Origin: Polytrichum commune
Taxonomy: Eukaryota > Streptophyta > Polytrichopsida > Polytrichales > Polytrichaceae
Direction of reading: 5' to 3'
Length of the DNA stretch: 64,000 bases
NCBI GenBank assembly: GCA_950295325.1
Contig: OX485803.1
Span: 43,229,554-43,293,553, forward strand
The position numbers were made by a program, and so were the translations under genes. How positions within the stretch are numbered: position 1 is the stretch's first letter; every line of letters begins with the position of its first letter. Below, piece after piece: positions 1 through 61,290 of the stretch. The notes beneath the pieces were generated by a model. That model did no database searches. It was not told where the DNA came from and saw only the letters and a program-made list of their open reading frames with translations.

Positions 1-1831
1 TCTTGCTCAAATTTAGCCCTCAGCTCCGCCTCCCTCTCTGACTTCTTCTGTGCTCTTCCGACATACCATTCCTTCTCATCAATTTTCTTGCCATTCAAGG
101 CGTCAACAGCTTTTGCAGCATCATCAGCATGCTCAAAGTTTACAAACCCAAAGCACTTCGATTTTCCTTCAATATCCCTCATGACCACAGCACTGCTAAT
201 TCCACCATAAGCACCAAAAACTTTCCTCAGCTCCTCATCATTAGTGTTCTCCCCCAAGTTCTTCACATACACATTGTTGAACTTGGATGCTCCGCCTGCC
301 TGATCCCTTTCCTGGCGGCGTACAAAAGGCCCCACAAACACCGGCTTATCAATCAGGAGCATTCCATTGACCTTTTCGATGGCAGTCTGAGCTGCTTCTT
401 CTTGCTCAAATTGCACAAAACCATACCCCTTGGACTGGCCAGAGCCATCTGTTGCCACCTTACAAGACAGGATAGCACCAAAGGCCGAGAAAGTATCATG
501 CAAGGCCTTGTTATCAATACTCTTGTCCAGGTTCTGCAGCACAACAGAAACAACAGAGTCAGTCCATGCCATTTGAAACACGAACCCCAGATACTCCCCA
601 GGGGCCATGTCAATGAATATAATTCCACTTAGGCTTGGCACCATGTATACCTTGCTCATTCGACATAGTATCACTCAAGTTTAACGTCAAGCACACCTTA
701 CCCATTCAACCCCTTATCAATCAACTGTTGTCATATTCAATGAACATGTCAAGTAGGCATTTCTACCTTGATGAAAATATTGGCCGTGCCACTCTTGCGA
801 ATGCTGGGGTCACGGTGAGAGAACATGATGCGGATGGGCTTGCCATTCACAGCTGTGAAGTTAAGAAGCTCCAAGGCCCGTGTAGCTGCAGAATACCAAG
901 TGCAGTTTAGAAACGGTCCAAGAGGCAAACACCAGTTCATCCACAAAGAATACATCATCTATCCTTCCATCCACTCCTAAAGACTTTCTGACCCCTCAAA
1001 CTACAAACCCTTTCAAGAACGCATCAAATCGCATTAACCCTCCAGGTATGATTGCAATTTGATGTTAACGGTTACATGCAAAACGAAAACAACGACAGTA
1101 AGATACAACGATCACCAAGTGTGTTGCAAAGTTTCATCAATGCAACCTTCGCCATAACGATACGTCAGAAGGAAAGGAAGGAGAAGAAAACGAAGCGTCA
1201 TGCAAAACCTAGAACTCTTAGCCAGGACGTTCACCTTGCTGCTTTGACGCCACCCTAAAAGAACCTAACAGCATAGAGAGTGGAACCCTAGGACTTAAAC
1301 AGTCCATTCCGTTGCGCCCTCTCCAAGACGAATGTAAACTAATGAATATCCGAAAGCCACAGCAACCGTCTTAAGGCGCCGCTAAAAGATATGAACCACT
1401 TCCATACTCAAAGAAATATACTAAAACCCTCATCGTAACCTAATGCGAAGAAGGAGCAGGGAAAAACGACCTAGATAACACCAAACCCTAGACACCACCG
1501 GGGACAGGTAAGCATCGTCATCGTCAACATCATCATCAACATCAACACGCATTCGGTGACGAGCAGACGTACCATCTTGTGCGCTGTTGTAGTTGACATA
1601 GGCATAGCCCAAAGAACGCCTGGTAATGAGATCGCGGCATACCCGGATCGATACAACTGGCCCAACCTGGCTGAAAATCTCGTATAGCTGAGCTTCAGAC
1701 ACGTTGGGCTCTAGGTCTCCAACGTAGAGCGACGTAGAGACAAACTGAGTGGGAGGAGCCCCGGCAGCAGCTGCCTGTTGTGCTGCCTGCTGCTGCTGTT
1801 GCTGCTGAGCTTGGGCCTGACCCTGAGCCAT
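1..1831 (-). CDS. PABP: Cytoplasmic poly(A)-binding protein, 5' part (cut by window edge)
   Basis: Binds mRNA poly(A) tails in the cytoplasm and supports translation and mRNA stability. Three exons are visible: 1573-1831 (ATG at 1831), 767-885 and 1-533, the last running off the edge. Junctions are GT-AG (donors GTACGT and GTAGAA, acceptors CTGCAG) and keep the frame. A Gln/Ala-rich N-terminus is followed by RRM1 ([10 protein letters not shown] as RNP2, SLGYAYVNY as RNP1), RRM2 ([28 protein letters not shown]) and RRM3 ([28 protein letters not shown]), then [16 protein letters not shown], where RRM4 would follow. About 303 residues are present of the roughly 630-660 usual for plant PABPs. Exon 1 ends inside RRM1. 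The ATG is chosen because the protein opens there just before the conserved [15 protein letters not shown] block. Family assignment is very secure; the paralogue number is not assigned. Confidence 0.96.
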
Positions 1832-2130
1832 CTTGTTGATGATGATCTTACAAACGAAATGAAATGATGATCCTAGGCCGCCGCACGGGTTGAGGGGAAA
1901 AGAGTGTCACGCAAAAACTGGTGAGCACAAAACTGCGGACAGGTTTTTTCAGGTTTTCCGAGGCAAGAAGATATAATAGTCTTCCGCCTGAATGATGATG
2001 GTGATGATGGTTAGTAAAAAGTGGCGTTGCTCTTCTCTTCTTCTAAGTTTTAAGGATTTTTTATTTTTTATGGTTTTAGAGACCCTCGCTCACAGAGAGT
2101 TCCAGGAAACAAGAGCGGCGACAAAATAAA
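1832..2130 (-). promoter_or_regulatory. PABP 5' UTR and core promoter region
   Basis: Read on the minus strand, this lies directly upstream of the PABP start. A TATA-like TATTATAT sits at 1971-1978, about 140 bp from the ATG. An A-rich tract (several A4-A6 runs) occupies about 2045-2075. PABP genes of other eukaryotes are known to bind A-rich 5' UTR sequence for self-repression. If transcription starts upstream of 2075, the same could apply here; if it starts near the TATA-like box, the tract is promoter DNA. Transcription start not determined. Confidence 0.45.
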
Positions 2131-5772: not shown

Positions 5773-6256
5773 CTAAGGGTCACTTCACACACGAGCCAAG
5801 AGCTGTGACCATGAGATTGTGAGAGCCCAAAAGAAAGTGTCCAAAATCATGGAGTGTGGTCATGGACCCTCAAGTATAGCGTGAAGTCATATGTGACGGG
5901 GCCCTCAACCAAATGCCATTTCAATGAACTTCTATTCATGCGGGTCCTCACACACGATAAAATAAAATAAACCAACGGTTGTGAGCGTTCGGGGTGCCAT
6001 GGTCTCCCGGTTTTGTGTTAGGCCTACCTCCAAGAGGTGAGTTTCAAAAATAATCCAAGTGACTATGAACATGATCCATTCGATGCCATGTAGGATTCCA
6101 TCCATGTAGACTTTACATCCATCTTGCATTCACATACTCTGTTTATCCCTCAAGCGTATGTGAAGCAAACTTGGACCGGCCCCACCTTTTCCACCAATGA
6201 GAGCACTTGAAGTGTACTAGTCACGGGCTCTCAGTCTCGTGTGTGAAGTGGTCCTA
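5773..6256. mobile_element. MITE-like element, family D, copy 1
   Basis: Imperfect terminal inverted repeats: TCACTTCACACACGAG near 5778-5793 and CTCGTGTGTGAAGTGG near 6236-6251, with GAGAGCCC (5819-5826) answered by GGGCTCTC (6226-6233) further in. No transposase is encoded. A second copy with the same termini lies at 62,325-62,668. No target-site duplication recognised. Confidence 0.55.
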
Positions 6257-6453
6257 AAGGCCTTCAGTCCAATTTACACCTTCATCTACACCATTCTCCA
6301 AGCCAATAGAATTGCTCCATTTTATTGCCCCCCCCCCCCCCCCAAGTCTCGTGTGTGAAGTGGCCCTAAAAGCCTTCAATCCAATTTACACCTTCATCTA
6401 CACCATTCTCCAGACCAATAGAATTGCTCCATTTTGTTGGACCCCCCCCCCCC
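6233..6453 (+). repeat. Two-copy tandem duplication (~113 bp) ending in C tracts
   Basis: The first unit begins TCTCGTGTGTGAAGTGG near 6235 and the second near 6348. Both continue through ACACCTTCATCTACACCATT and AATAGAATTGCTCCATTTT and each ends in a C run (16 C at 6328-6343; 12 C at 6442-6453). The first unit overlaps the right terminus of the family D element, so the duplication includes that terminus. Confidence 0.75.
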
Positions 6454-7179: not shown

Positions 7180-7577
7180 TTTCAAGGTCCTGGGGCTCGA
7201 CATGCCCCTGTAGTTGGAGGAAGCGCTCGCCTTCGTCGGCTCGGACGACCATTTTGGGCGAGTATGTAATCTACAAACTTACCAATGGTCGTTTCGTTTG
7301 CCTGCCCACTAACGAATGACGCGGTTCACGGCCACGGACACGACGCACCTCGATGAGATGATTCATACCCTCTCTCAAAACAAAGTGGAAGCTGTTGGCC
7401 TCTACGATACTGCTGTTAGCAACTACTACGACGCCACATTGCTCTGCTCGTGCAAAAGCTTGCTTCCTTGACCATTGTATCGAAACCAGCAGGTACTTGT
7501 GGCTTGCTCATCTCAAGGAATCTACGTTGGCGCCAAATTTGCCGACTCCGGAAGGTTGTGAACCACCTGGCTTGTAA
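7180..7577 (+). pseudogene. Decayed FAS1 exon, relic of a GDSL-FAS1 gene
   Basis: The plus strand matches the last exon of the minus-strand gene at 20,354-23,711, but with frameshifts. Recognisable blocks: PLTNDAV, then in another frame TATDTTHLDEMI, then SQNKVEAVGLYDTAVSNYYD, then SSQGIYVGAKFADSG, and finally PPGL followed by the conserved stop at 7575-7577. The intact copies read FLPTNDAF, TATDTTLID, VEAVGLYHTVSNYYD, SSQGIFIG and IPPGL. The segment between SSQGI and PPGL, including the second FAS1 motif (VAIHGIDRVVIPP), is mostly deleted. The YH pair has become YD. No GDSL exon was found upstream; the GC-rich island lies there instead. The left boundary is approximate, because homology fades before 7250. 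Confidence 0.85.
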
Positions 7578-8596
7578 AAGAGGTGCGCCCCAGCATTTAT
7601 CTCACATGGGGACCCAATACCCTATGCCACGGATAGCTGAGCTGTTTTGTTGCAGACACAAATAAGATGAGATTCATTGGAAGAAAAGAGCGAAGCGTTC
7701 TCTACGACCGAGAATTGAGACACGAATAAGTATCAGGTTGGCACTAAGATGCGTACATGTGACACCGTCAGGTTTTTAAGTGCTCCTTGTTGACTCCGGA
7801 GGTCCGTGGTAGGGCCAGCCATCTGATTGCCAAGAATGGTTCGTAAGATAAACTTTGCAGCTCAATCGTACATTTCGGGAACAAATTCATTCATCATAAG
7901 TCCACTGTAGAATGACAATCAGATTTATTCCAACTCCGATGAGGTCGCGCAATTGTTTGCATTTCTCTGAGCATTGTTGTGTGAGGAAAAAGCTTGACAC
8001 GCTGATCCCCAGCACTAATCCTAGCAGCATTGTGCAGCCTGCTGGTTGAGAAGAAATTTTCGTGTTCCCATCTGTGTTCACCAAAAACTTTAAAAAAAAT
8101 CTGGATCAGATTTGTCTTTGTCATGTACAGTTAGTGCAGAGGAAATGTTTGTGTGTGAGATATAACTTACACCGCATGCGCACTTTGACTAATAAGATGA
8201 AGGATCCCCAACAACTCCGACATAACAAAACTCATAGGTGCAGCATCAGGTCATTCATCACGAACTCGTTTCTTGGATCCGTATAGAACGACACCACATC
8301 TCCGCGACAGATTTGTTCTTCACAAATTCGAGAATTATTAGGTTGCACAGTTGCTTGCATCTGTGTGAATGAGCTAAAAGCCCACTCTGCTCAAGAATAT
8401 CCTCACGATGGTTGAATTCCAGTTGAAAGGATCCAACAGGTTGCATTTTAAACATCGAGTCATATGATCGTTTGAGAAGCATTTGAATGAGAACATGTGG
8501 GCTTATCGATTCACTTATGGCTCTCGCATCGATTGATAGGAGGATATATTGGCATTGTACAGTTCAGTTAGATGTGTACCTACTGCACCAAATCTA
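7578..8596 (+). repeat. Duplicated 3' flank of the FAS1 relic
   Basis: Homologous, in inverted orientation, to about 20,353-19,250 downstream of the first GDSL-FAS1 gene. Shared blocks in the same order include TTTTGTTGCAGAC, AAGATGAGATTC, GTACATGTGACAC, CATCTGATTGC and, at the end, GCACCAAATCTA. Similarity stops near 8596 on one side and 19,250 on the other. Conservation over about 1 kb of non-coding DNA shows a DNA-level duplication, not a processed mRNA copy. Confidence 0.82.
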
Positions 8597-20353: not shown

Positions 20354-23300
20354 TTACAAGCCAGGCGGGATGACGACACGATCGATTCCATGGATCGCAA
20401 CCTTCCCAGGCACAGTGTACAAGTCGGGGTCAACAACTTTGGCAGCCGAATTGGCGCCAATGAAAATGCCTTGAGATGAGTAAGCCACAGGTAATTGTTG
20501 ATTCGACACGGTGGTCAAGGAAGCAGGCTTTTGCGTGAGCAGAGTGTTAGCGTCGTAGTAGTTGCTCACGGTGTGGTAGAGGCCAACAGCTTCCACTTTG
20601 TTTTGAGAGAAGATGTTGTCAATGAGCGTCGTGTCGGTGGCCGCAAATGCGTCGTTAGTGGGGAGAAAGACGGTGACCACAGTCTGTGGATATTGACCCA
20701 ACATGGTGTCCAAGTCGAAAGATTGCAACAGGCCGACCGCCTCCGAGTATTTAGGATTGCCGAGGAGGAAATCGAGCGCAGCTTGCACTTGGCCAATAGC
20801 TAAAGACATATCTGAAATCACAAAGTGAAAACACCACATTCAAGTTCAGATTCATATTCATTGGGAAAACTGACAAATACATCAATGAAACTCAATCTGT
20901 ATAAAACATCCGCAAACCACTCCAAATTTGTTACATTTTAGTGCTTTCAGAATCTACTCTTCACAGCAACCATTCAAGTACTACCTAGACGGCCCTCTTG
21001 TTGTACGAGTTCCCATCAATTTGCAATTAGACATCACAATGCAACCTTCCTACAAACTGACCAAGCTCCCACCCCACAGACAAATTGAAACTAACGCCGA
21101 AATTCTCACCCAAAATGTCAGCAAATTACTTACACTCAAAAATACGTGGATCTGTTTCTTCAGACTACCTCCATCGAATTCTCTGCTTCAACATGCAATA
21201 AACCTCCAGCACGCATTCTTAAAGTTCTAGGCAGGAGTTTGCAGAATACTTACCAGGCTGAGCCATGGGGGCGGCGACAGGCTCTTGGACGGCGTCATTG
21301 ATTTGCAACCACTGCTTCAAAGTGGGAGCATCTGCCAACAGAATGAATTGAGGGTGATCAGTGTAGAGCTGAATCAAATAGTGCCATGCCCACATGGTAG
21401 GGTGAAACTTGTCCCAAAACACCGCTCTCCCTCTCTTCTTGCACACGGTGTACAGCCATTTCCCATTTGCATCGACATCGCCACAGTTGCTAGTGTTCGT
21501 AGTTCCCTTACAGCAGGGTACCAGCTTATCGGTGAAACCTACGGCGGATGTCTGCTTGAATAAATGGCTGAACGCAGCGGCCTGGTCCAAGATGATAAAC
21601 CTCGCTCCGGGATTCAGGGCATTGATGCTTTGAACTGCACCGAGGAGGAAGGCATTGTGCATGGTTACGATCGAATCGTAGGAACTGTCACAAACACGGT
21701 AATTGGTTTTTGCGGTGAGTATAGGGTAACAGCCGACCGGAGGTAAGTTGGTCACCAGCACATTGCGCAGGCCCAGATCGTAAAGTCTCTGTAAGCTTGT
21801 TTGAATCCCCGAAACAACAAGCTCAATGTACATGAAGAGTTCCTGAATAATATACACAAAACAAATCAATGCAAGCACCTCATTCTTTTTTAAAGCCCAG
21901 AAACAACAAGCTCAATGTACATGAAGAGCTCCTGAATAATATACACAAAACAAATCAATGCAAGTACCTCATACTTTTTTAGAGCCCAGAAGCAACAAGT
22001 AAAATGTACATGAAGATCTCCATCATAACCACAAAAACCGAATGCAAATGCCTCGGTTAGTACTATTTACAATGTACGCGCTTAGCTCAAATTTAACTAG
22101 GATTTTGATAGCAAGCCTCTATTTCGACGACTATGAATGTGACTTACTGCAGATGTTGTTCCAGTGAAGGCAAGATAGTCATTTCCGCTTACAGACACCA
22201 GGGTGACTGAATTAGCCAAAGCGACTTTAGAGTATGGATCTGTGCGGAGGAACAACTCGAAATTGTCAACCTGCCCAGCCAGAGGTGTGTATTGCACACC
22301 ACTTGTGTAGGTAACCCCACTGCCTGCGATTGCAAAATTCACCCCGGAGGAAGTGTTTTGGCCGGCAGAGTAAAAATAGGCAGGCAGGTACGGGAGACCG
22401 AGCATGTCCGCTGCAAACATACCAAACACAGAGTACAAACTTACATGAGAGAATCATACACAAATCACGAATTATGAGAGACAGGAGAAGAAAAAATTGC
22501 ATCAACATGGATATGCACGCAACTTCTCATGGTTGCAAGCATGACACGATTCCAGTACAAGAACATTGTAAACCATAACTTCAGAGCTCCGAATTTCACC
22601 CGAATTTCACGAGGTTTCCTCGTAAGTGGATGAGCAGGGAAAAAGATTGCGAACATACCACATTCATGAGAATCGCAAAGATAGCATTCTGTTTCGAGTT
22701 ACTCACCGAACCAATCGGTTTGTATCTTTCCGTCGGAGTAGCGCCCTGCAGGCTGCCCTGGCCATGTGATGCCGTATGGAAACTTCCATGCGCTGCTCAT
22801 ATTCATTCCACTCTTTTGCGAGTTTCCGGTATCCGCATATGAGTCACCAAACGCAAACATCAATGTTGTCTTTTGGGCATATGCTGCACAAACAGAAGCA
22901 TCGCCACAATGAACCATGATCAGATGGCTACAACAGAAATCACCAGCACAGGAAGCACGACAACTTATAATGGGCATCAAGATGTCTATGAAGAGCATTG
23001 ATGCAGGTCTTGATTATTAGTAGATTGGCATCCCATCATCCTCTCGATGACCTTTTGAGATACTTAGAAGTGTGCACGAAGTCTGTCCAAAGCTCCAGGG
23101 ACACATGATCTGTAATTTTGAAGTAGAAAGCCATGGCTCTTCCGAATTCCCACCGAATTAAACGCCTGGTTACAGAGACTGTTGATAAAATCTTTCACGC
23201 TACTGCTGGCAACTTGAAACCAACTCTTAAGACTTTTGGACATCCTGATATCAGTATACGAGTCTACTGAGAGGATATACGCAGCTCTTGATTACCAGTA

Positions 23301-23711
23301 ATTGTGCATCACCTAAAACGCCAGAGATTTACAAGACCCTTTTGAAGAACTAATTGGACTTCTAATCCAAACCAAAGTGTCGAGTACTTGCATTCAGTCA
23401 AGGTAATTCAAGAGATTTCTCACACATCTTCACAAGTTTCCATAACGTCGGTCGTACTAGATATGACATGAGAACTGATTATAGGAGACAATACGGCCCT
23501 GAAAAAGTGAACGAACAATTTGTCTGCAAAAACAGTCTTTTGGCAAACTCGCAAAGGGACGACTGGAACCAAGTTCAATTATGCGACTGAATAATCTACT
23601 ATATAATACTGCAGAACTTGGGTTTGTAATCTACAACCTACCTGATACGAACAAAGAGGAACAACAACACATCAAGATCACCGCAGCCATAAGCCTCGTG
23701 GTGCCCGCCAT
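20354..23711 (-). CDS. Secreted GDSL esterase/lipase fused to a FAS1 domain (copy 1)
   Basis: Predicted extracellular hydrolase, 518 residues. Exons: 23,642-23,711; 22,707-22,883; 22,148-22,410; 21,254-21,842; 20,354-20,811. All introns are GT-AG, phases 1, 1, 0, 1. Residues 1-26 form a signal peptide (hydrophobic LMAAVILMCCCSSLFVS). The GDSL domain follows: block I FAFGDSYADTGN with Ser38, Gly112 in NFAIAGSG, Asn159 in VSGNDY, and Asp314/His317 in FWDKFHPT, so the catalytic set is complete. Block I plus WKFPYGITWPGQPAGRYSDG resembles the Arabidopsis At5g03610-like clade. After a short Pro/Ala linker (EPVAAPMAQP), exon 5 encodes a FAS1 domain: TVFLPTNDAF (413-422), LYH (444-446), VAIHGIDRVVIPP (504-516). 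There is no C-terminal hydrophobic tail, so no GPI anchor is predicted. Usual GDSL proteins stop near 350-400 residues without FAS1. Domain calls are secure; substrate is unknown. Confidence 0.93.
21808..22020 (-). repeat. Intron 3/exon 4 junction in triplicate (89-bp unit)
   Basis: The true end of intron 3 and first bases of exon 4 (about 21,808-21,896) are repeated at about 21,897-21,985 and, truncated, to about 22,020; offset 89 bp each. The second copy keeps the same pre-acceptor sequence ending TATTATTCAG, giving a decoy 3' splice site before 21,931. Splicing there would read ELFMYIELVVSGL and then a stop. The third copy has lost the acceptor. Exonic bases have thus been copied into the intron. 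Confidence 0.85.
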
Positions 23712-26346
23712 AGTGGTCAGTCAGTCTGCAGATGGGAATTAGCTGCAGCTCCCGCTTGAATACGTAAGTCGATCAATATGTAGCCGATGTTGGTGACCTA
23801 CGAATGATCAATCAGAATTATAACTTATTGTTACTTGGAGGGTCATCATGCCTACTCCCCTTGAGGGCCAAATCCAGGGTGCAGCTCAAGGATTGCCAAG
23901 TGGCGATGCTAGCGATGGGCAGGTCCAAAAGTAAGGGCCCTGCACACGTGGAAGCCACTAATTCCCCACTAATTCCAGCTGCAGCTTCACTTTCCTGAAG
24001 AAGATAGCCGGTGAAGCGCGGTTGTAGTAGTTATGGAAGATGCTGCCTAATCCCCCTAATTCTATCCACACTGTGAGTCATCATAGCTTTGACATACAGA
24101 TGTTGTGCAAACTGTGGTTCCACGCACTTGATCTCCCTCGCTGTGGTCAATTTCTTCTCGGGACTTGTTCTTGTCATCATCATATACCTGGTACTTCTCC
24201 AGAACCGGTCAGCGTTGCAAAAACCACCCCTGCACGCGGAAAACAAACATCGATGTGTAGTTGTAAGTTCCCTGCCAATCCTCACATTGAAATTCGACAT
24301 CGACAGGGAATTTGCACAAATATCTGCAAGTTAATTACCTAACCTCCTAGTCTGTAAGGAATTACTTGTATCTACTAGAGGACCTGCGGAAGAATTTGAT
24401 CACGCCTCCGTTTCGATCATTACCGGTGGTCCTTCTACAAGCTCAGTGAGCTACTAAGAAATTTCAGAGTCGCCAATGGAATTCCTGCCAAAGTTCCTAT
24501 TTTTGTGTGAATGCAGTGGCTATCATTCATTAAACCCCATAGAAGTTTCAAAAGCCTGAGTGAGTGGGCGGTTGGAGGGTGCAAGATCTACCGCAGTAAG
24601 TTAAATGAGGATGCCACGAAGAAACAGATATGCGGGGGGAAAGTGACATGGGCTTGCATGTCGCCGAAGGTATAGCTGATGACGCAGACGCCTGATGAGG
24701 TCAGAAATCTGGATTAGAAAAAGTGACAGGCCTGGGGCAGTACTGCTGCCGCTGCTTTTCATGGTTTCATCTTTTGACTAAATCTTCACAAGGTACTTCA
24801 CTGCACCCGAAAACTATCTTGAGGCACACAGATGAAAAGTTTGTGGTGAAATAATAAGCGCCGGAGTACAGGAGTAGAAAACCTACGTGTAGAACCACTT
24901 ATTACTCACGAAGACAAAAGATTGCCTTTGTGATTCATTCGAATAAAAATTTGTTTGTTGATAGTCTGCTTGGTCGTTATTCACAATCAAGATGCACCAG
25001 GATGACACTATCGGTATAATTAAGTTATACTCTTAATGAATTTTACAGTTGATTATCTCCAGGCGGTTCAAGCGTGCTTGGAGTGACCATTTGTGAAGAA
25101 TCGGTTTAGTTTGTCACTGGTGTAGAGCTTCGGGTAAATGTAGGATTCAGGCTCACTGGATGATTCACGAGACTTGGAACAATATAATGATAACCGAGAA
25201 TTTTCAAGTTCTTCCAGAGACGCAACAGGATTGAAGGGGTTTGCACACGAAATCGTTTTCAAGTCTGAAGTTTGGTTTCTAAGTCTAAGGTGCGGGGGTG
25301 TGATTCGGTTTGTTTTTCTTATTCTCCATCTTCTGTTGATCAGATTTACGTTTTCAAATCTGTGTTGCATTAACAAATGTATGATGGAACTTCGACAAAT
25401 ACCAGATTGAAAATCGGACCTTCCCTGGTTTAGTTATGGTTATTGAAAGTGCATGTTTGTTGATTCGTTAACTGAATATAATAGATCCTCCCAATTGTGT
25501 TCACTATCAACTGTGGAGGAGTCAATGAAATCTGAAGTTGTAATCCAATCTCTAGTAAACAGGTGTCTTTATTCTTCCATCCTCACCTAATCACACACCA
25601 ATCAAATATTGTAGGTGTCCGATTAGGGAAATATCCGAACTACACCCGCGTATCTTACAAAAAGTACGATACTGGAGTTTTCCACATTCTCAGAACATTC
25701 GCAAACCGCCTGAACTTGACCATGCACCGCACTACTCGACATTCCAGTTTTTTACCTTTCTTCAAAAGAAAGTAAAGAAATTGTCTCCTGCACTTTTTAC
25801 TCGTAGGTGAAGAATGGTCGAGATAAATCCAGCTCGCTATACATATGCCAGTACATTCTCTTTTTCACACGGGTTTCAATATGGAACAATCTTAGATTGA
25901 TGATGCCATGACGCAACTCAGTGTATCGGTTTGTAAAAGAGAAGTATCAAAACTCTTTTCCTTCCACAATGTAAACACAATGTACATGATGGTTATGAAG
26001 CAGTGGCATGCGGCTGTTTGCAAAGCGCATCATTATTCCGTGTAAGTTTACCTATGCTTGCTGTAGCCGGACGTAGCCGGCTGTTGTTTTTTTTGATCTG
26101 TAGCACCTTTGCAGTAGTCACTGCTACCTAAAGACCTTCACGAAAGCTAATCAGGATTGTTGCAGGTTCGAACCGACAATCAGCAAAACTTAACAACCAA
26201 CCCAATGCTCTTGACTATACAAATCCTTTAAGAAAGCTGATGTCATCTCCGACCTAAGAAGAAGCTAAGGTTACAAATTGGATTTTGTTAAACCCTAAAA
26301 ACAGAAGAACTTTTTCCCCAACCTTGTGATGGTTGATGGTTGCAGA
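23712..26346. other. Region between the two GDSL-FAS1 genes; promoter of copy 1
   Basis: No gene seen. Near the copy 1 start there is a G-box CACGTG at 23,945-23,950, about 235 bp upstream, and a weak TATA-like TTATAATT (minus) near 23,816. Both genes have a GCCAAGTGG-containing stretch upstream (about 23,897 and 31,159), but I see no extended promoter similarity. The 3' flank of copy 2 (below 26,347) does not resemble that of copy 1. Confidence 0.45.
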
Positions 26347-29300
26347 TTACACACCCGGAGGGATGAGCACATGATCAATTCCGTGAATCACAACTTGCCC
26401 GGACACAGTGTACAAATTGGGGTCAATAATCTTGGCTGTCGAGTTATTCCCGACGAAGATTCCTTGCGTCGAGTAGGTAACAGGGAGCTGTTGGTTCGAC
26501 AGGGTGGTCAAAGTCGCAGGTTTCGACGTCACAAGTGTATTTTGGTCGTAGTAATTGCCCACCGTGTGGTATAGGGCGACGGTGTCTACCTTATTTTCGG
26601 AGAAGATTCGGTCGATGAGCGTAGTGTCGGTTGCTGTGAAGGCGTCGTTGCTTGGGAGGAACACTGTGACGACGGATTGTGGGTATGTGCCTAACAATCC
26701 TTCCAAGTTCAACGATTGCAACAGACCAAGTGCTTCCGAGTACTTGGGCTTGTCGAGAAGGAAATTGAATGCCGCTTGGACTTGTCCGGCAGCCAAAGAC
26801 GTATCTGCATATTATCATCGTTCATCACCACCATCAGAAACAAAATTCATCAGAATGACTTAGTAGGCTGGAACAAACATGTACTCACACTTCCCTCTGG
26901 TCAGACTCAAGGGAATTCTCCAATTATGCCTAAGATCACTATGTCATGGCTATAGGTACACTAAACATCTGCTTAGTTTGACCTACACTATTCATCATCG
27001 ACCAACATTACTTTTGGAACAGGTGTTACATGACAAAGTCAAAAAGACCACAATGCCACAATGGCCTTTTTGACTCTAGTTTAACATGGTACATCTAGAC
27101 AGTTGTTAGAAAAGCTCATTGTGTGATAAGATTCAGAAAAGGCTCACTAAGGATAAGATTGGGGGACAAATAACTACATTAGAGTATATACATGTGATTT
27201 AGTGTGGCCCACACTATTCGTCATCGGTCCATGTAAATGACCTTACAATCGTTGGGTGGCAACCAATCCCCGACCAAATAAGCCTTATGGCCCAAGCAAT
27301 AGACTTCACGTAGCAAAGGCAACACCTCAAACTGACCAAAGTACTTTTCTATGACTTGACTTGTCACACATGATGGTGGTCACCTCGAAATGGTGACCAA
27401 AAATTCATGGATTTTTTTGTTACAGTTACCAACAGATAACTCTTATAGTTTTAGGTTAACCGTGATCACTTCAAGCTTCTTCGAAATTGGGAGTGTCCAA
27501 CTTTGAGATGGTCACCATTTCAATGTGGCAAGCCCTTCCATGCGAGTCCTATTTTATTAGTTAAAGATGCCTGCAAGATTCAATGATGGTGAAAATGGAG
27601 TTAAGGTTAACTGATGGTGAAATCTTCGTACCTGGAAAGCTCATCGGAGCGGCGACAGGTTCTTGGGTGACATCGTTGATTCGCAACCACTTGGTCAATG
27701 TAGGAGCATCCGACAACAAGATGAATTCCGGGTGGTTAAGATACAACTGCATGACGTAATGCAAAGCCCACATGGTAGGATGGTAATAATCCCAGAATAC
27801 GGCCTTCCCTCTCTTCTTGCAAACCGTGTAGAGCCATTTACCATTTCCATCCACATCGCCGCATTGACTTGTGTTGGTGGTTCCTTTGCAACACGGTACC
27901 AACTTATCGACGAACCCAACCGCGGCCGCTTGCTTGAACAGATGGCCGAAGGAGGCATACTGGTCCAGGATGATGAATCGTGCTCCCGGGTTGTTGGCGT
28001 TGATACTCTGGACGGCGCCTAACAGGAACGCGTTGTGGATTTGCACGAGACTGTCTGAGGAGTTGTCGCAGAATCGGTAGTTCGATTGCATGGTGTAGAT
28101 TGGTAGGCATCCTACCGGCAACATGTTTGCCACCATCACATTGCGAAGGCCGAGGTCGTAAAGTCGTTGTAAGTTCGTTTGAATTCCCGTGATTACGTCC
28201 TCGATGTATACAAATAGTTCCTGGAATTCCAACCAAATGGGTTAGTATCTCCCCTTTCGATTAGCTGTTTCTAAATCACTTCTAGTAAGCAGTAGTTTCC
28301 ATGAATATCTATTCATTTGTTACAGTTTCACAATGAATCTGAGTAATGTGACGATGTTTTGGAAAGAGAGCATTAGGAAGCATCCATTCATATTAATTGG
28401 AAATGTCGGAATTAGGATTGGTTGAAACTTTCAAATATTGGTGATGGTCTTAGAACGAATTCGATGCAATTTGTTTCTGAAGCAGGGGTCATCATTAAAT
28501 TACCTCAAAAATCGTTGAAATAATTAGTAAATCTAACCCACAAGACGATTTCACGACATCCCCCTCCAACAAGGCCCTCATATATTTATTTTCAAATGGT
28601 TCGGTGACTCACCGCCGAATTGTTCTGTGTGAAGCTCAAGTAGTCGTTCCCAGTCACCGATACAAAGGTGAGTGAATTGGCGATGGCAGTTTTGGAGTAT
28701 GGGTCGGTGCGACGGAATAACTCGAAATTGTCCACTTGAGTACCCAGAGGTGTGGCGCCTGATCCGTAAGTGACGCCACTTCCCCCAACCGCAAAGTTCA
28801 CGCCCGAAGAGGTGTCTTGTCCGGAAGAGTACAGATATGGCGGCGGGTAAGGAAGACCCAGGGTGTCAGCTGAACACACAAAAATTCACACAACAAACCT
28901 CATCAAATCGTTGCTGAAACCAGCTTCCGGAAGCTTTCTACATGCCAATTGCTTCAAGTCATAATTATGAGTATGCATGCATCTCCGATGCTAAGTAAGA
29001 AGAAACGTAAGGTCCAGCTACACAGAGCTTGGGCTCAAGTTTAACCGCAAGCTTGCAACTTTGATGGGCCAAGGTAAACGAACATGAGCGTTTACGTGTG
29101 CTTTGAGGGTGGTGGAGCTTGATTCCTGCTTATTTAGGATTGATTTTCAAGTTCAAGCCGAAACTTCATTAACTTGTAGTCATCGGACTTGACATGACTT
29201 GTGAATTCTAGACTTCCGGCTTGAATTTGAAAATCGATCCTAAATAAGAAGGAATCGAGCTCCACCATCTTCAAAGGTACACATCAACGCTCATATTCTT

Positions 29301-30959
29301 TTACCTTGGCCCACCAAACTTGAGGTTGAGCTTAAGTTGTGTAAGCAGCCCCCTTATAATTAATCATCATGCATCGGTTCCATTTCAACTCAGCTGTGGC
29401 CTGAAGTTCATCACCTCTGTCCCAATATCTAGGATTAGGATAGATGTACCCTTTTCACCAATGGTACCATCCACCTTTACCCTAGAGTTTGGATAGAGCC
29501 GGTGATGAACTTCAGGACCTTTGCGCACCTTGATTGCCAAGATGTTCAGTGGTCAAAGCGTTTAGATCACTCTGTTACGCTTGTCTTGATAACTCAATTG
29601 CAAGGTACTCAAAGGAAATTCATTCAACTGTCTCCAACACACATGACCACCTTGAAATTGTTGCACTAGATTTTATGACTAAATGGCACTTATAAACTAC
29701 TTTTGAGTGTTGATTCAGATGACAAAATTCTTGCAAGTTGCGGATGAGTGGTGCTTCGACAGTGAGACCGAACCTGGGTCGATCGACACTAGCTAGGTTT
29801 ATACAGAAGTATATATACTTACCAAACCAATCTGTTTGAATTTTGCCGTCGCAAGCACGTCCGTCAGGCTGCCCAGGCCATGTGATGCCGTAGGGGTAGA
29901 TCCACGCCCTGCCGATGTTGGCTCCACTCTTGGGTGTGTTTCCAGTGTCAGCGTATGAATCACCGAACGCAAACAGCAACGTTGTTTTTTGCCCATAAGC
30001 TGCACATCATCAACAAAATCGAATGACAAAAAGTAGTGATTAATTAGGCACATGAAATTTTTCTGCAGTCACGCTGGAGGCCATTCATCATCACGATAAG
30101 TTTTGCAGAATCCGTCTGTTTCACACATTACTTTGTGCCAATTCACGATGCACTCAACACGAGAGAGTCAATTCACGAAGGTGCAGATACAAGTGAAGTC
30201 TGTAAGACCAGAGTTGGCTCCGACGTTGGACCTACAAATCTATGAGTTTGATTGACAAAGGATCACCCGGGTTCATATACCGCACATCAATCCATTGAAA
30301 TATGTTAGGGACTTGCCATCAACTCTACAACTTTGAAATACAAACATGGTGTCTCTTTGATTCCTGCCACTAAATTAACTCATGTTCAGATAACTAGGAT
30401 ATTAAAGACACTTGGGATCTTGAGTCTTGACTGGTTGATTCTGCCACTTCAAGATGCTGGACTCGTCCAGAACATATTCTCAAATTCTCAAACAGATTGA
30501 ATCCCTTTTTAAAGTATCTGGCACTTTTCAGCTGCCTCCAAATCACGATGATCTCGATCGATGCTTACTGTTTTATCCTCTGCCCCAGCTGGACGGTGGA
30601 GTCCAGCTGCAGGGCCGCAACTCGAAGTTGGCTCCTCCTTATACTCTTCTTCCCAAATCCTCAAGAAATTTTCCAATTCATAGCTCTCCTCTTCGGAGGG
30701 AGGCTTGTGTAGTGGTAGACATCTGATTGAAACTCCCTAACTATTTACAGACAACGATCCTGAAACCTGCACAAACCTAATGGGGAGCCTAATACTCTTC
30801 AGATTCAACTTCCAGCTCAACAATTCAGGCGACTCGCACGTTGAGCCATCATGACGCAAAAATCAGAGACTGCAGATCCATACCTGATATGAACAGAGAT
30901 GTACAACTCAGGAGAGCCAAGAGCAGCGCCACCATGATCCTCGTCGAACTAGTGGCCAT
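26347..30959 (-). CDS. Secreted GDSL esterase/lipase fused to a FAS1 domain (copy 2)
   Basis: Tandem paralogue of the gene at 20,354-23,711, also 518 residues. Exons: 30,884-30,959; 29,823-29,999; 28,613-28,869; 27,632-28,220; 26,347-26,804. Exons 2, 4 and 5 have exactly the same lengths as in copy 1 (177, 589, 458 nt) and intron phases agree (1, 1, 0, 1). Signal peptide 1-27 (MVALLLALLSCTSLFIS). Catalytic residues: Ser40 in FAFGDSYADTGN, Gly114 in NFAVGGSG, Asn159 in VTGNDY, Asp314 and His317 in FWDYYHPT. FAS1 motifs on exon 5: TVFLPSNDAF, LYHTV, VVIHGIDHVLIPP. No GPI tail. Introns are longer than in copy 1 (intron 2 is 953 versus 296 bp), partly because of two inverted-repeat insertions. 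Same orientation, with 2.6 kb between the genes. Nothing suggests inactivation. Confidence 0.93.
26970..27250 (-). repeat. Fragments of repeat family B in intron 4 of copy 2
   Basis: TTTAGTGTGGCCCACACTATTCGTCATCGG near 27,197-27,226 and CTACACTATTCATCATCGACC near 26,982-27,002 resemble the inverted right end of family B elements. The intron (26,805-27,631) is longer than its counterpart in copy 1 (827 versus 442 bp). Confidence 0.4.
29011..29353. mobile_element. Long-hairpin MITE in intron 2 of GDSL-FAS1 copy 2
   Basis: About 340 bp that fold back on themselves, with arms of roughly 150 bp. GGGCCAAGGTAAA, GAGCGTTTACGTGTG and TTATTTAGGATTGATTTTC on the left are answered in reverse complement by TTTACCTTGGCCC, CACATCAACGCTC and GAAAATCGATCCTAAATAA on the right. 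No coding capacity; target-site duplication not clear. Absent from the equivalent intron of copy 1. Confidence 0.75.
29395..29522. mobile_element. Short inverted-repeat element in intron 2 of copy 2
   Basis: A perfect 16-bp inverted pair, CCTGAAGTTCATCACC (29,400-29,415) and its complement (29,501-29,516), with weaker pairing further in (AATATCTAGG against CCCTAGAGTTT). Likely a second small MITE inserted close to the first, about 40 bp away. Confidence 0.55.
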
Positions 30960-35606: not shown

Positions 35607-36125
35607 GTAGTTTCCATTAAAATGAGAGTATGTTAAGCTGGGAAATCAACTCATATAGGTTGAGTCGACCTAAATGAGGACAATATTTTGTCAATTTAGG
35701 TTGAGTCGACCTAAATGAGGACATTATGTTGTCAATTTAGGTTGAGTCGACCTAAATGAGGACAATATTTTGTCAATTTAGGTTGAGTCAACCTAAATGA
35801 GGACATTATATTGTCAATTTAGGTTGAGTTGACCTAAATGAGGACAATTATGTTAGTTAATTTAGGTTGAGTCAACCTAAATGAGGACATTATGTTGTCA
35901 ATTTAGGTTGAGTCGGCCTAAATGAGGACAATTATGTTAGTTAATTTAGGTTGAGTCGACCTAAATGAGGACAATTATGTTAGTTAATTTAGGTTGAGTC
36001 GAACTAAATGAGGGCAATTATGTTAGTTAATTTAGGTTGAGTCGACCTAAATGAGGACAATATGTTGTCAATTTAGGTTGAGTCGATTTCCCAGCTTAAC
36101 ATACTCTCATTTTAATCGAAACTAC
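35607..36125. mobile_element. Fold-back-like element: 40-bp TIRs around 11 hairpin repeats
   Basis: Terminal inverted repeats at 35,608-35,647 and 36,085-36,124 match at 39 of 40 positions (TAGTTTC...CTGGGAAATC). Between them the motif GGTTGAGTC recurs 11 times, at 35,658, 35,699, 35,740, 35,781, 35,822, 35,865, 35,906, 35,949, 35,992, 36,035 and 36,076, with periods of 41 or 43 bp. Most units carry a small palindrome, ATTTAGGT-TGAGTCG-ACCTAAAT. Two unit types alternate in blocks (spacer ending TTTTGTCA/TGTTGTCA or TGTTAGTTA). No coding capacity and no clear target-site duplication. Confidence 0.85.
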
Positions 36126-60240: not shown

Positions 60241-61290
60241 GTGCTTTTAGTTGCTGCCAGAAGCTGTCTTTCTCAAGCCACCCCATTTATCATCCTCCTC
60301 AAACTAAAGTCAATCTAGACTACAAATCAGGTTGATCCAAACTTGAAGAATTTGAAGTCAGAGTATCCTGGGACTCATACACATTTGTCAAATCCTGTGA
60401 AACACAATGATGTTCACAAGCGCTCCATTCGCACAGGAAAAAAGAGATGCCATTAGTACGCACGTTATGGAAGGAACTTTATGACCCTAAAATGTTGGGA
60501 GTGCTTTGATTGTAGCCAGAATAAGCTGCCTTTTCCAGCCATCTAACTTCTACCTTTCCCCAGACTTAACTCAATTTAGACTACAACACGCCAATGTTCA
60601 ATCCAAACCTTCAGAAATATGAAGTCCAAGCATCCTTATAATCATAGACATTTGTCAAATTTCATGCAACACAAGCATGCTCACAAGCACTGCATAGCAA
60701 CGGGTAGAAGAGATGCCACAATTCTGCAAGGGAATCTAAAACCCTAAAATGTTCAGAGTGCTATTGATTGCAATCAAAATCAGCTGCTTTTCTCAAGCCA
60801 TCTCACATCTATCTCTCCTCAAAGAGATGTAAGTTTAGACCACAAAACAACCAGTTGATTCCAACGTCAAGAATATGAAGTCAGAGAATGCTTAGAGTCA
60901 TTCACATTTGTCAAATTCTGTGAACCACAATGATGCTCACGGGCACTCGATAGCAACAGAAAGAAAGAGATGCCACCATGTACGCACATTCTGCAAGGGA
61001 ATCTAAAACCCTAAAATGCTGGGAGTGCTTTTGATTGCAGCCAGAAAAAGCTGTGATGATCCAGCCATTCCCCCTCTGTCTCTCCGCAAACGGAAGTAAA
61101 TTTAGACTACAATTGATCCAAATCTTAGGAAATACGAAGTCCGAGCATGCTTGGAATCATACATAGTTGGTCAAATTCTGTGAACCACGAGGATGATCAC
61201 CAGCACTCATTAGCAACAGACAGAAAGAGCGAGATTTCCATCATGTGCGCACATTCTGCAAGGGGGTTTGAAACCCTAACATAATTCCTA
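60241..61290 (+). repeat. Tandem array, four copies of ~260 bp
   Basis: The marker GTGCTTTTGATTGCAGCCAG or a variant occurs at 60,241, 60,501, 60,758 and 61,025 (spacings 260, 257, 267). Each unit continues with CAAGCCA, TTTAGACTACAA, AAGTC-GAGCATGC-like, ACATTTGTCAAATTC, TGTGAACCACAATGATGCTCAC, AGAGATGCCA and ACATTCTGCAAGGGAATCTAAAACCC. The last unit ends about 25 bp before the uL18 stop codon, so the 3' UTR of that gene must lie in the array. Confidence 0.85.

What the first reader, a model, noticed from the sequence alone, without database searches (positions are those of the whole stretch)
20354..30959. GDSL esterase/lipase fused to a C-terminal fasciclin domain, in tandem duplicate
Both genes splice cleanly into 518-residue proteins with a signal peptide, a catalytically complete GDSL domain and a full FAS1 domain (H1-like TVFLPxNDAF, YH, H2-like IHGIDxVxIPP). 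Plant GDSL enzymes and plant fasciclin-like proteins are normally separate; I do not know of a described fusion. A secreted ester hydrolase carrying an adhesion domain could be held at the cell wall or cuticle near its substrate. Two intact copies with preserved frames argue that the fusion is functional and not an annotation artefact. The function is inference.
Basis: partly seen in the sequence, partly recalled or inferred. Interest (0 to 1): 0.8.

Follow-up and report, generated by a model that had tools for sequence, protein, structure and literature searches.

The report
Plant esterase joined to fasciclin domain
Two neighbouring plant genes each encode what looks like a secreted GDSL-type esterase with a fasciclin (adhesion-type) domain added at its tail, an unusual and apparently old pairing that could hold the enzyme in place in the cell wall or cuticle.

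Summary
Both genes (minus strand, 23711-20354 and 30959-26347) splice through five exons into 518-aa proteins with matching intron phases. Each carries a GDSL domain with its catalytic motifs and a full-length FAS1 domain, above the Pfam cut-offs. The exon 4/5 join looks real: the copies are 74% identical, dN/dS is about 0.1 in both domains with dS near saturation, introns and flanks barely align or not at all, and exon 5 of B has no in-frame ATG. A broken third copy on contig C4 keeps the order GDSL, linker, FAS1. Two unfused GDSL paralogues stop just before the linker, so FAS1 was added at the usual C-terminus. Seven other FAS1 places found in the genome show no GDSL, and 0 of 78 bacterial or archaeal FAS1 reading frames carry one. 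Ten literature searches did not turn up the fusion, but plant proteomes could not be searched. Best reading: an apoplastic acyl-hydrolase or transacylase held near its substrate by FAS1; function is inferred. A new architecture made of known parts.

The parts
20354..23711 (-). Gene A: five exons (23711-23642, 22883-22707, 22410-22148, 21842-21254, 20811-20354), 518-aa GDSL-FAS1 protein
   Evidence: Splice model (best of two open GT-AG solutions); Pfam; motifs
26347..30959 (-). Gene B: five exons (30959-30884, 29999-29823, 28869-28613, 28220-27632, 26804-26347), 518-aa GDSL-FAS1 protein
   Evidence: Splice model (the only open GT-AG solution in the search); Pfam; motifs
20354..20811 (-). Exon 5 of A: full-length FAS1 domain (residues 367-518)
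   Evidence: Pfam PF02469 profile positions 2-123 of 123
26347..26804 (-). Exon 5 of B: full-length FAS1 domain; no in-frame ATG
   Evidence: predicted fold pLDDT 87.5, leading PDB matches are FAS1 domains
20812..21253 (-). Intron 4 of A (442 bases), joins GDSL exon 4 to FAS1 exon 5
   Evidence: gtaagtat...ttgtgatttcag; hardly any alignable sequence with intron 4 of B, score 29 against a shuffled maximum of 25
26805..27631 (-). Intron 4 of B (827 bases)
   Evidence: gtacgaag...gataatatgcag
21254..21842 (-). Exon 4 of A: second half of the GDSL domain with block V WDKFHP, then linker QEPVAAPMAQP
27632..28220 (-). Exon 4 of B: second half of the GDSL domain with block V WDYYHP, then linker QEPVAAPMSFP
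7325..7633 (+). Degenerate remnant of the same FAS1 subtype on the opposite strand, internal stops, no GDSL match beside it
   Evidence: tblastn (in one search 59% over query residues 55-123, one TGA inside)

Best explanation
Each gene makes one secreted two-domain protein: a plant GDSL (SGNH) acyl-hydrolase or transacylase whose natural C-terminus was extended by one exon encoding a FAS1 domain. An N-terminal signal sequence sends it to the apoplast. The Ser-Gly-Asn-His centre hydrolyses or transfers acyl groups (cutin-type esters or acetylated or feruloylated wall polymers are the likely substrates). The FAS1 domain, which comes with neither an AGP region nor a GPI-type tail, binds a wall, cuticle or membrane-surface partner and keeps the enzyme near its substrate. 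Shown here at sequence level: the splice model, both domains, purifying selection on both, and a fusion older than the tandem duplication. Inferred: transcription as one unit, secretion, activity, substrate, and FAS1 as the holding module.
For: Consistent GT-AG joins and phases in two copies. Exons align and introns barely or not. dN/dS by LWL85 0.095 (GDSL), 0.113 (FAS1), 0.12 (whole), dS 1.4-1.8. No in-frame ATG for exon 5 of B. A broken third copy on C4 has pieces of exons 3, 4 and 5 in the same order on one strand (an exon 2-like frame by eye), with linker-like WLQINEATQGPVGA and a FAS1 start DMSLATGQ behind a TTAG acceptor. Two unfused paralogues stop at the level of fusion residues about 350-354, just before the linker. 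Catalytic blocks present. FAS1 fold confident, with adhesion-protein FAS1 domains (TGFBIp, fasciclin I, periostin) among its leading PDB matches. Most hydrophobic stretch at residues 7-24. The Marchantia cell-wall proteome holds 23 GDSL proteins and six fasciclin AGPs (PMC8792609, passages).
Against: No transcript evidence. FAS1 binding and esterase activity are untested. The linker (dN/dS 0.27) and signal region (0.41) are less constrained than the domains. Reading on past the exon 4 donor gives 11 further codons to a stop in A and 23 in B (my count), so a GDSL-only form by intron retention is possible. Intron 4 aligns slightly above its shuffled maximum (29 against 25). FAS1 domains can also bind hydrophobic ligands (AstaPo1 with astaxanthin is a match), which would be a different role.
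Confidence: 0.55

Rival explanations
1. FAS1 is a ligand-binding or substrate-presenting domain (for example for a lipid, carotenoid or cutin precursor), not an anchor; the two domains work as a capture-and-cleave pair.
For: PDB matches include the carotenoid-binding FAS1 protein AstaPo1 with astaxanthin (rank 16, E 5.1e-06) and AstaP-pink1 (rank 23, E 2.5e-04); GDSL substrates are often hydrophobic esters (general knowledge). No AGP region or GPI-type tail to favour adhesion.
Against: Most of the best structural matches are adhesion-protein FAS1 domains, though chains of phycobilisomes rank 4, 6 and 7; sequence cannot tell the two roles apart.
Confidence: 0.25
2. Two separate genes: a GDSL gene ending in intron 4 and a FAS1 gene starting near exon 5, joined only in the gene model.
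For: Reading on past exon 4 meets a stop after 11 codons in A and 23 in B (my count); A has an in-frame ATG at 20839 just before exon 5 and another at 20809, its first full codon.
Against: Exon 5 of B has no in-frame ATG at all, so those of A are not shared; intron 4 holds next to no alignable sequence; donor and acceptor are shared by A and B, and the acceptor position also by the broken third copy.
Confidence: 0.05
3. Both forms are made: intron 4 retention or early polyadenylation gives a soluble GDSL-only enzyme, splicing gives the FAS1-held enzyme.
For: Open read-through of 11 codons (A) and 23 codons (B) before a stop (my count).
Against: The read-through tails are unrelated between A and B (GKYSANSCLEL versus GTKISPSVNLNSIFTIIESCRHL), so a selected short form is unlikely.
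Confidence: 0.15

Closest known systems
Plant GDSL esterase/lipase family (GELP; Pfam PF00657)
   Same: Hydrophobic N-terminus, blocks I, II, III and V; exon borders near residues 85 and 171 shared with unfused multi-exon GDSL loci of this genome
   Different: Unfused paralogues L003 and L004 stop at the level of residues about 350-354; here a FAS1 exon follows. Block I reads GDSY, not GDSL.
Fasciclin-like arabinogalactan proteins (FLA; Pfam PF02469)
   Same: Full-length FAS1 domain with H1, YH and H2
   Different: No AGP region by the criterion of PMC12209756, no hydrophobic GPI-type tail, and an enzyme domain in front. L006-L008 of the same genome do have Pro/Ala-rich AGP-type stretches (by eye).
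Animal FAS1 adhesion proteins (TGFBIp, periostin, fasciclin I)
   Same: FAS1 fold, TM-score normalised by query 0.57-0.73
   Different: 18-23% identity in those matches; they carry several FAS1 domains and no esterase (recalled)
GDSL wall and cuticle enzymes: tomato GDSL1/CD1, rice BS1 and DARX1
   Same: GDSL enzymes acting on cutin or on acetylated xylan (PMC8792609 and PMC8880598, passages)
   Different: Single-domain enzymes (recalled); BS1 and DARX1 are Golgi-localized, while the fusion looks secreted; its substrate is unknown

Membership tests
GDSL esterase/lipase (GELP) | PF00657 above curated cut-off | tested here: met
   80.4 (B) and 82.9 (A) bits against 23.6
GDSL esterase/lipase (GELP) | Ser, Gly, Asn, His/Asp in blocks I, II, III, V | tested here: met
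   FAFGDSYADTGN, GVNFA, GNDY, WDxxHP in both; block names and their residues recalled
GDSL esterase/lipase (GELP) | Secretion signal | tested here: inconclusive
   The three highest 15-residue hydropathy windows lie within residues 7-24 in both; no signal-peptide predictor at hand
GDSL esterase/lipase (GELP) | Ester hydrolase or acyltransferase activity | not testable with these tools
   Needs purified protein
Fasciclin-like arabinogalactan protein (FLA) | FAS1 domain | tested here: met
   61.1 (B) and 58.8 (A) bits against 22, profile positions 2-123 of 123; fold of exon 5 of B
Fasciclin-like arabinogalactan protein (FLA) | AGP region: at least three [STAGV]P dipeptides separated by at most six residues (criterion read in a passage of PMC12209756) | tested here: not met
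   Five such dipeptides in each protein, the nearest two starting 19 residues apart
Fasciclin-like arabinogalactan protein (FLA) | GPI-anchor tail (many FLAs) | tested here: inconclusive
   Ends IHGIDxVxIPPG(L/V); mean hydropathy of the last 25 residues 0.32 and 0.52, so no obvious hydrophobic tail, but no GPI predictor was run

The most novel reading that the evidence does not exclude
An old class of early-land-plant enzymes in which a FAS1 domain serves as a wall- or cuticle-binding (or lipid-presenting) module for a GDSL esterase or transacylase, much as carbohydrate-binding modules serve glycosidases. It is kept by selection in more than one copy and has not been described in the literature searched here.
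Probability: 0.4. Interest if true: 0.55.

Novelty: new variant of a known kind. Interest (0 to 1): 0.42.

Why it matters
If true, plants use FAS1 as a targeting module for an extracellular esterase, which gives FAS1 an enzyme-linked and therefore assayable role. What plant FAS1 domains bind is, to my knowledge, an open question. Deleting one exon would separate catalysis from binding. It would also add a variant, probably from an early-diverging land plant, to the enzymes that build or remodel cutin and wall esters.

Tried and rejected
Rejected: two separate genes (no in-frame ATG in exon 5 of B, shared splice sites, next to no alignable sequence in intron 4). Rejected: filing it as an FLA (no AGP region, no obvious GPI-type tail). 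Rejected: a pseudogene pair (both frames open, dN/dS about 0.1).

Tried without result: relatives in viral contigs with exon 5 of B (one relative counted but no locus returned), with both exon 5 sequences (none of 95 stretches) and with both exon 4 sequences (none of 67); first scan of bacterial and archaeal genomes (none of 146 stretches). The second such scan used another FAS1 domain of the window's genome (L007) as query and gave 78 loci out of 364 matched stretches. One reading frame per locus was extracted (some loci end at a contig end, so a few frames may be cut). 0 of 78 had a GDSL match in Pfam, while all 79 alignment members (exon 5 of B plus the 78) had FAS1. This is one pattern scan, not a survey of prokaryotes. 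YN00 dN/dS failed for all five partitions and NG86 dS could not be computed for the GDSL partition. Rfam: no match in the window. NCBIfam, protein A only: three matches, all far below their cut-offs. The GDSL half was not folded, because a spliced protein is not given letter for letter by the window DNA; none was sent.

The species was not determined. The genome has seven large contigs (77.9, 70.3, 59.2, 59.1, 52.9, 44.7 and 42.1 Mb) of 407.8 Mb in 64 contigs. From recall this would fit a moss with seven chromosomes (Polytrichaceae?), but nothing here tests it.
Full report
WHAT IS THERE. Two genes lie head to tail on the minus strand. A search of GT-AG combinations within 15 bases of the expected borders gave one open solution for gene B and two for gene A; the best-scoring one in each gives 518 residues. 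The second solution for A uses another acceptor of exon 5 and loses four residues. The exon lengths put all four introns in the same phase in A and B (my reading). Pfam finds Lipase_GDSL (80.4 bits in B, 82.9 in A, cut-off 23.6, profile to position 198 of 208) and a full-length Fasciclin domain (61.1 and 58.8 bits, cut-off 22).

IS THE JOIN REAL. First, A and B are 74% identical in protein. By LWL85, dN/dS is 0.095 for the GDSL part, 0.113 for FAS1 and 0.12 for the whole, with dS of 1.4-1.8; the 30-residue linker region (0.27) and the first 25 residues (0.41) are less constrained. NG86 gives dS 2.3 overall and no value for the GDSL part, and YN00 failed for all five partitions. Both domains have therefore been under strong constraint since an old duplication. 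Second, all five exon pairs align above their controls (scores 34-350, maxima of 20 shuffles 18-26). Introns 1-3 score below their shuffled maxima. Intron 4 is slightly above (29 against 25), as is the 3' flank (26 against 24); the 5' flank equals it (24 against 24). Conservation thus stops close to the splice sites. Third, exon 5 of B has no in-frame ATG; A has one at 20839 and one at 20809, so they are not shared. Fourth, a broken third copy lies on contig C4 (about 41.234-41.246 Mb). tblastn finds pieces of exons 3, 4 and 5 in order on one strand, and a frame beyond them resembles exon 2 (by eye). It has stops and frame changes inside, but keeps the linker-like WLQINEATQGPVGA and a FAS1 start DMSLATGQ behind a TTAG acceptor at the same position.

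HOW IT AROSE. Unfused multi-exon GDSL loci of the same genome share the borders near residues 85 and 171. Two that I read to the end, L003 and L004, stop with WIKKYAS* and FLGVAT*, at the level of fusion residues about 354 and 350, just before the linker. FAS1 was thus added after the natural C-terminus through one extra exon. The Fasciclin family search found 11 matches in the genome: two are the fusions and nine lie at seven other places; it did not list the broken C4 copy or the window remnant, which came from protein searches. I fetched all seven places (L006-L012, 2.2-4.0 kb each). None matched the GDSL part at E of 0.01 or better, and none of the 61 GDSL matches lies within 1 Mb of them. 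Three of the places are FLA-like with Pro/Ala-rich stretches (by eye). These whole-genome searches score only the best candidates, so absence is not proven. Outside plants, 0 of 78 bacterial or archaeal FAS1 reading frames carry a GDSL domain; they came from one pattern scan.

HOW IT MOST LIKELY WORKS. The FAS1 exon of B folds confidently (pLDDT 87.5, pTM 0.84). Its best solved neighbours are mostly extracellular adhesion FAS1 domains (TGFBIp, fasciclin I, periostin), but include chains of phycobilisomes and of NDH-1, and the carotenoid-binding FAS1 proteins AstaPo1 and AstaP-pink1. With an N-terminal hydrophobic stretch, no obvious GPI-type tail and no AGP region, I read it as an apoplastic acyl-hydrolase or transacylase retained by FAS1. 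The main alternative is that FAS1 captures or presents a hydrophobic ligand. Substrate, activity and binding are not shown. The closest solved GDSL relatives of protein A by sequence are Lysophospholipase A (8a24), ChoE and other GDSL-family esterases at E 2e-09 to 8e-06, which say little about the substrate.

LITERATURE. Ten searches of the held library were made. Searches found no paper; only paired GDSL with Polytrichum. I saw listings with titles and the starts of abstracts; one search listed 20 of 46 papers and one search listed 15 of 51, the others all they found. None of these titles or abstract starts reports a GDSL-FAS1 fusion. I looked at passages in nine papers and read none whole: PMC8792609, PMC10945595, PMC9029284 (12 of 17 places shown), PMC6514703, PMC5266747 (12 of 15), PMC12209756 (12 of 32), PMC4757993, PMC8880598 and PMC3412167. 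The main texts of two FLA/AGP papers covering moss and liverwort, PMC6514703 and PMC12209756, hold neither the word lipase nor esterase. PMC5266747 holds no lipase or GDSL, but does mention chimeric AGPs with a pectin esterase, so an esterase joined to another wall-type module is not unheard of. The three GDSL papers PMC4757993, PMC8880598 and PMC3412167 hold no fasciclin. Most subscription papers and all plant proteomes were out of reach.

VERDICT. Real at the level of sequence, old and selected; made of two well-known secreted families in an arrangement I could not find described. New variant of a known kind; interest moderate.

Noticed in passing
window 7325-7633 (+): Degenerate FAS1 remnant of the fusion subtype with internal stops on the opposite strand, about 13 kb from gene A; no GDSL match beside it in the window.
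   Followed up: partly
L001 1061-1237 and L002 1182-6964 (G000 C4 about 41.234-41.246 Mb): Broken third copy of the fusion, same order on one strand, with stops and frame changes.
   Followed up: yes
window 21796-22021: An 89-base unit repeated 2.5 times spans the start of exon 4 and part of intron 3 of gene A and copies the start of exon 4 (ELFMYIELVVSG). At least one copy keeps an acceptor-like ttattcag (read), a possible decoy ahead of the real acceptor.
   Followed up: partly
window 3-674 and 1433-1906 (-): Open frames with RNA recognition motifs (PF00076), perhaps exons of one RRM-protein gene.
   Followed up: no
window 6233-6453, 35656-36086 and 60295-61229: Tandem arrays with 112-base, 41/84-base and 267-base units.
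   Followed up: no
L005 920-1702 (-) (G000 C6 about 27.903 Mb): GDSL match inside a 431-codon uninterrupted frame, unlike the multi-exon GDSL loci of this genome.
   Followed up: no
G000 C2 29437135-29438629 and 29452079-29453573: Two GDSL loci 15 kb apart with the same scores and identities at all three matched stretches, a recent duplication or an assembly duplicate.
   Followed up: no
Viral-contig search: One viral-collection stretch was counted as encoding a relative of exon 5 of B but no locus was returned.
   Followed up: no
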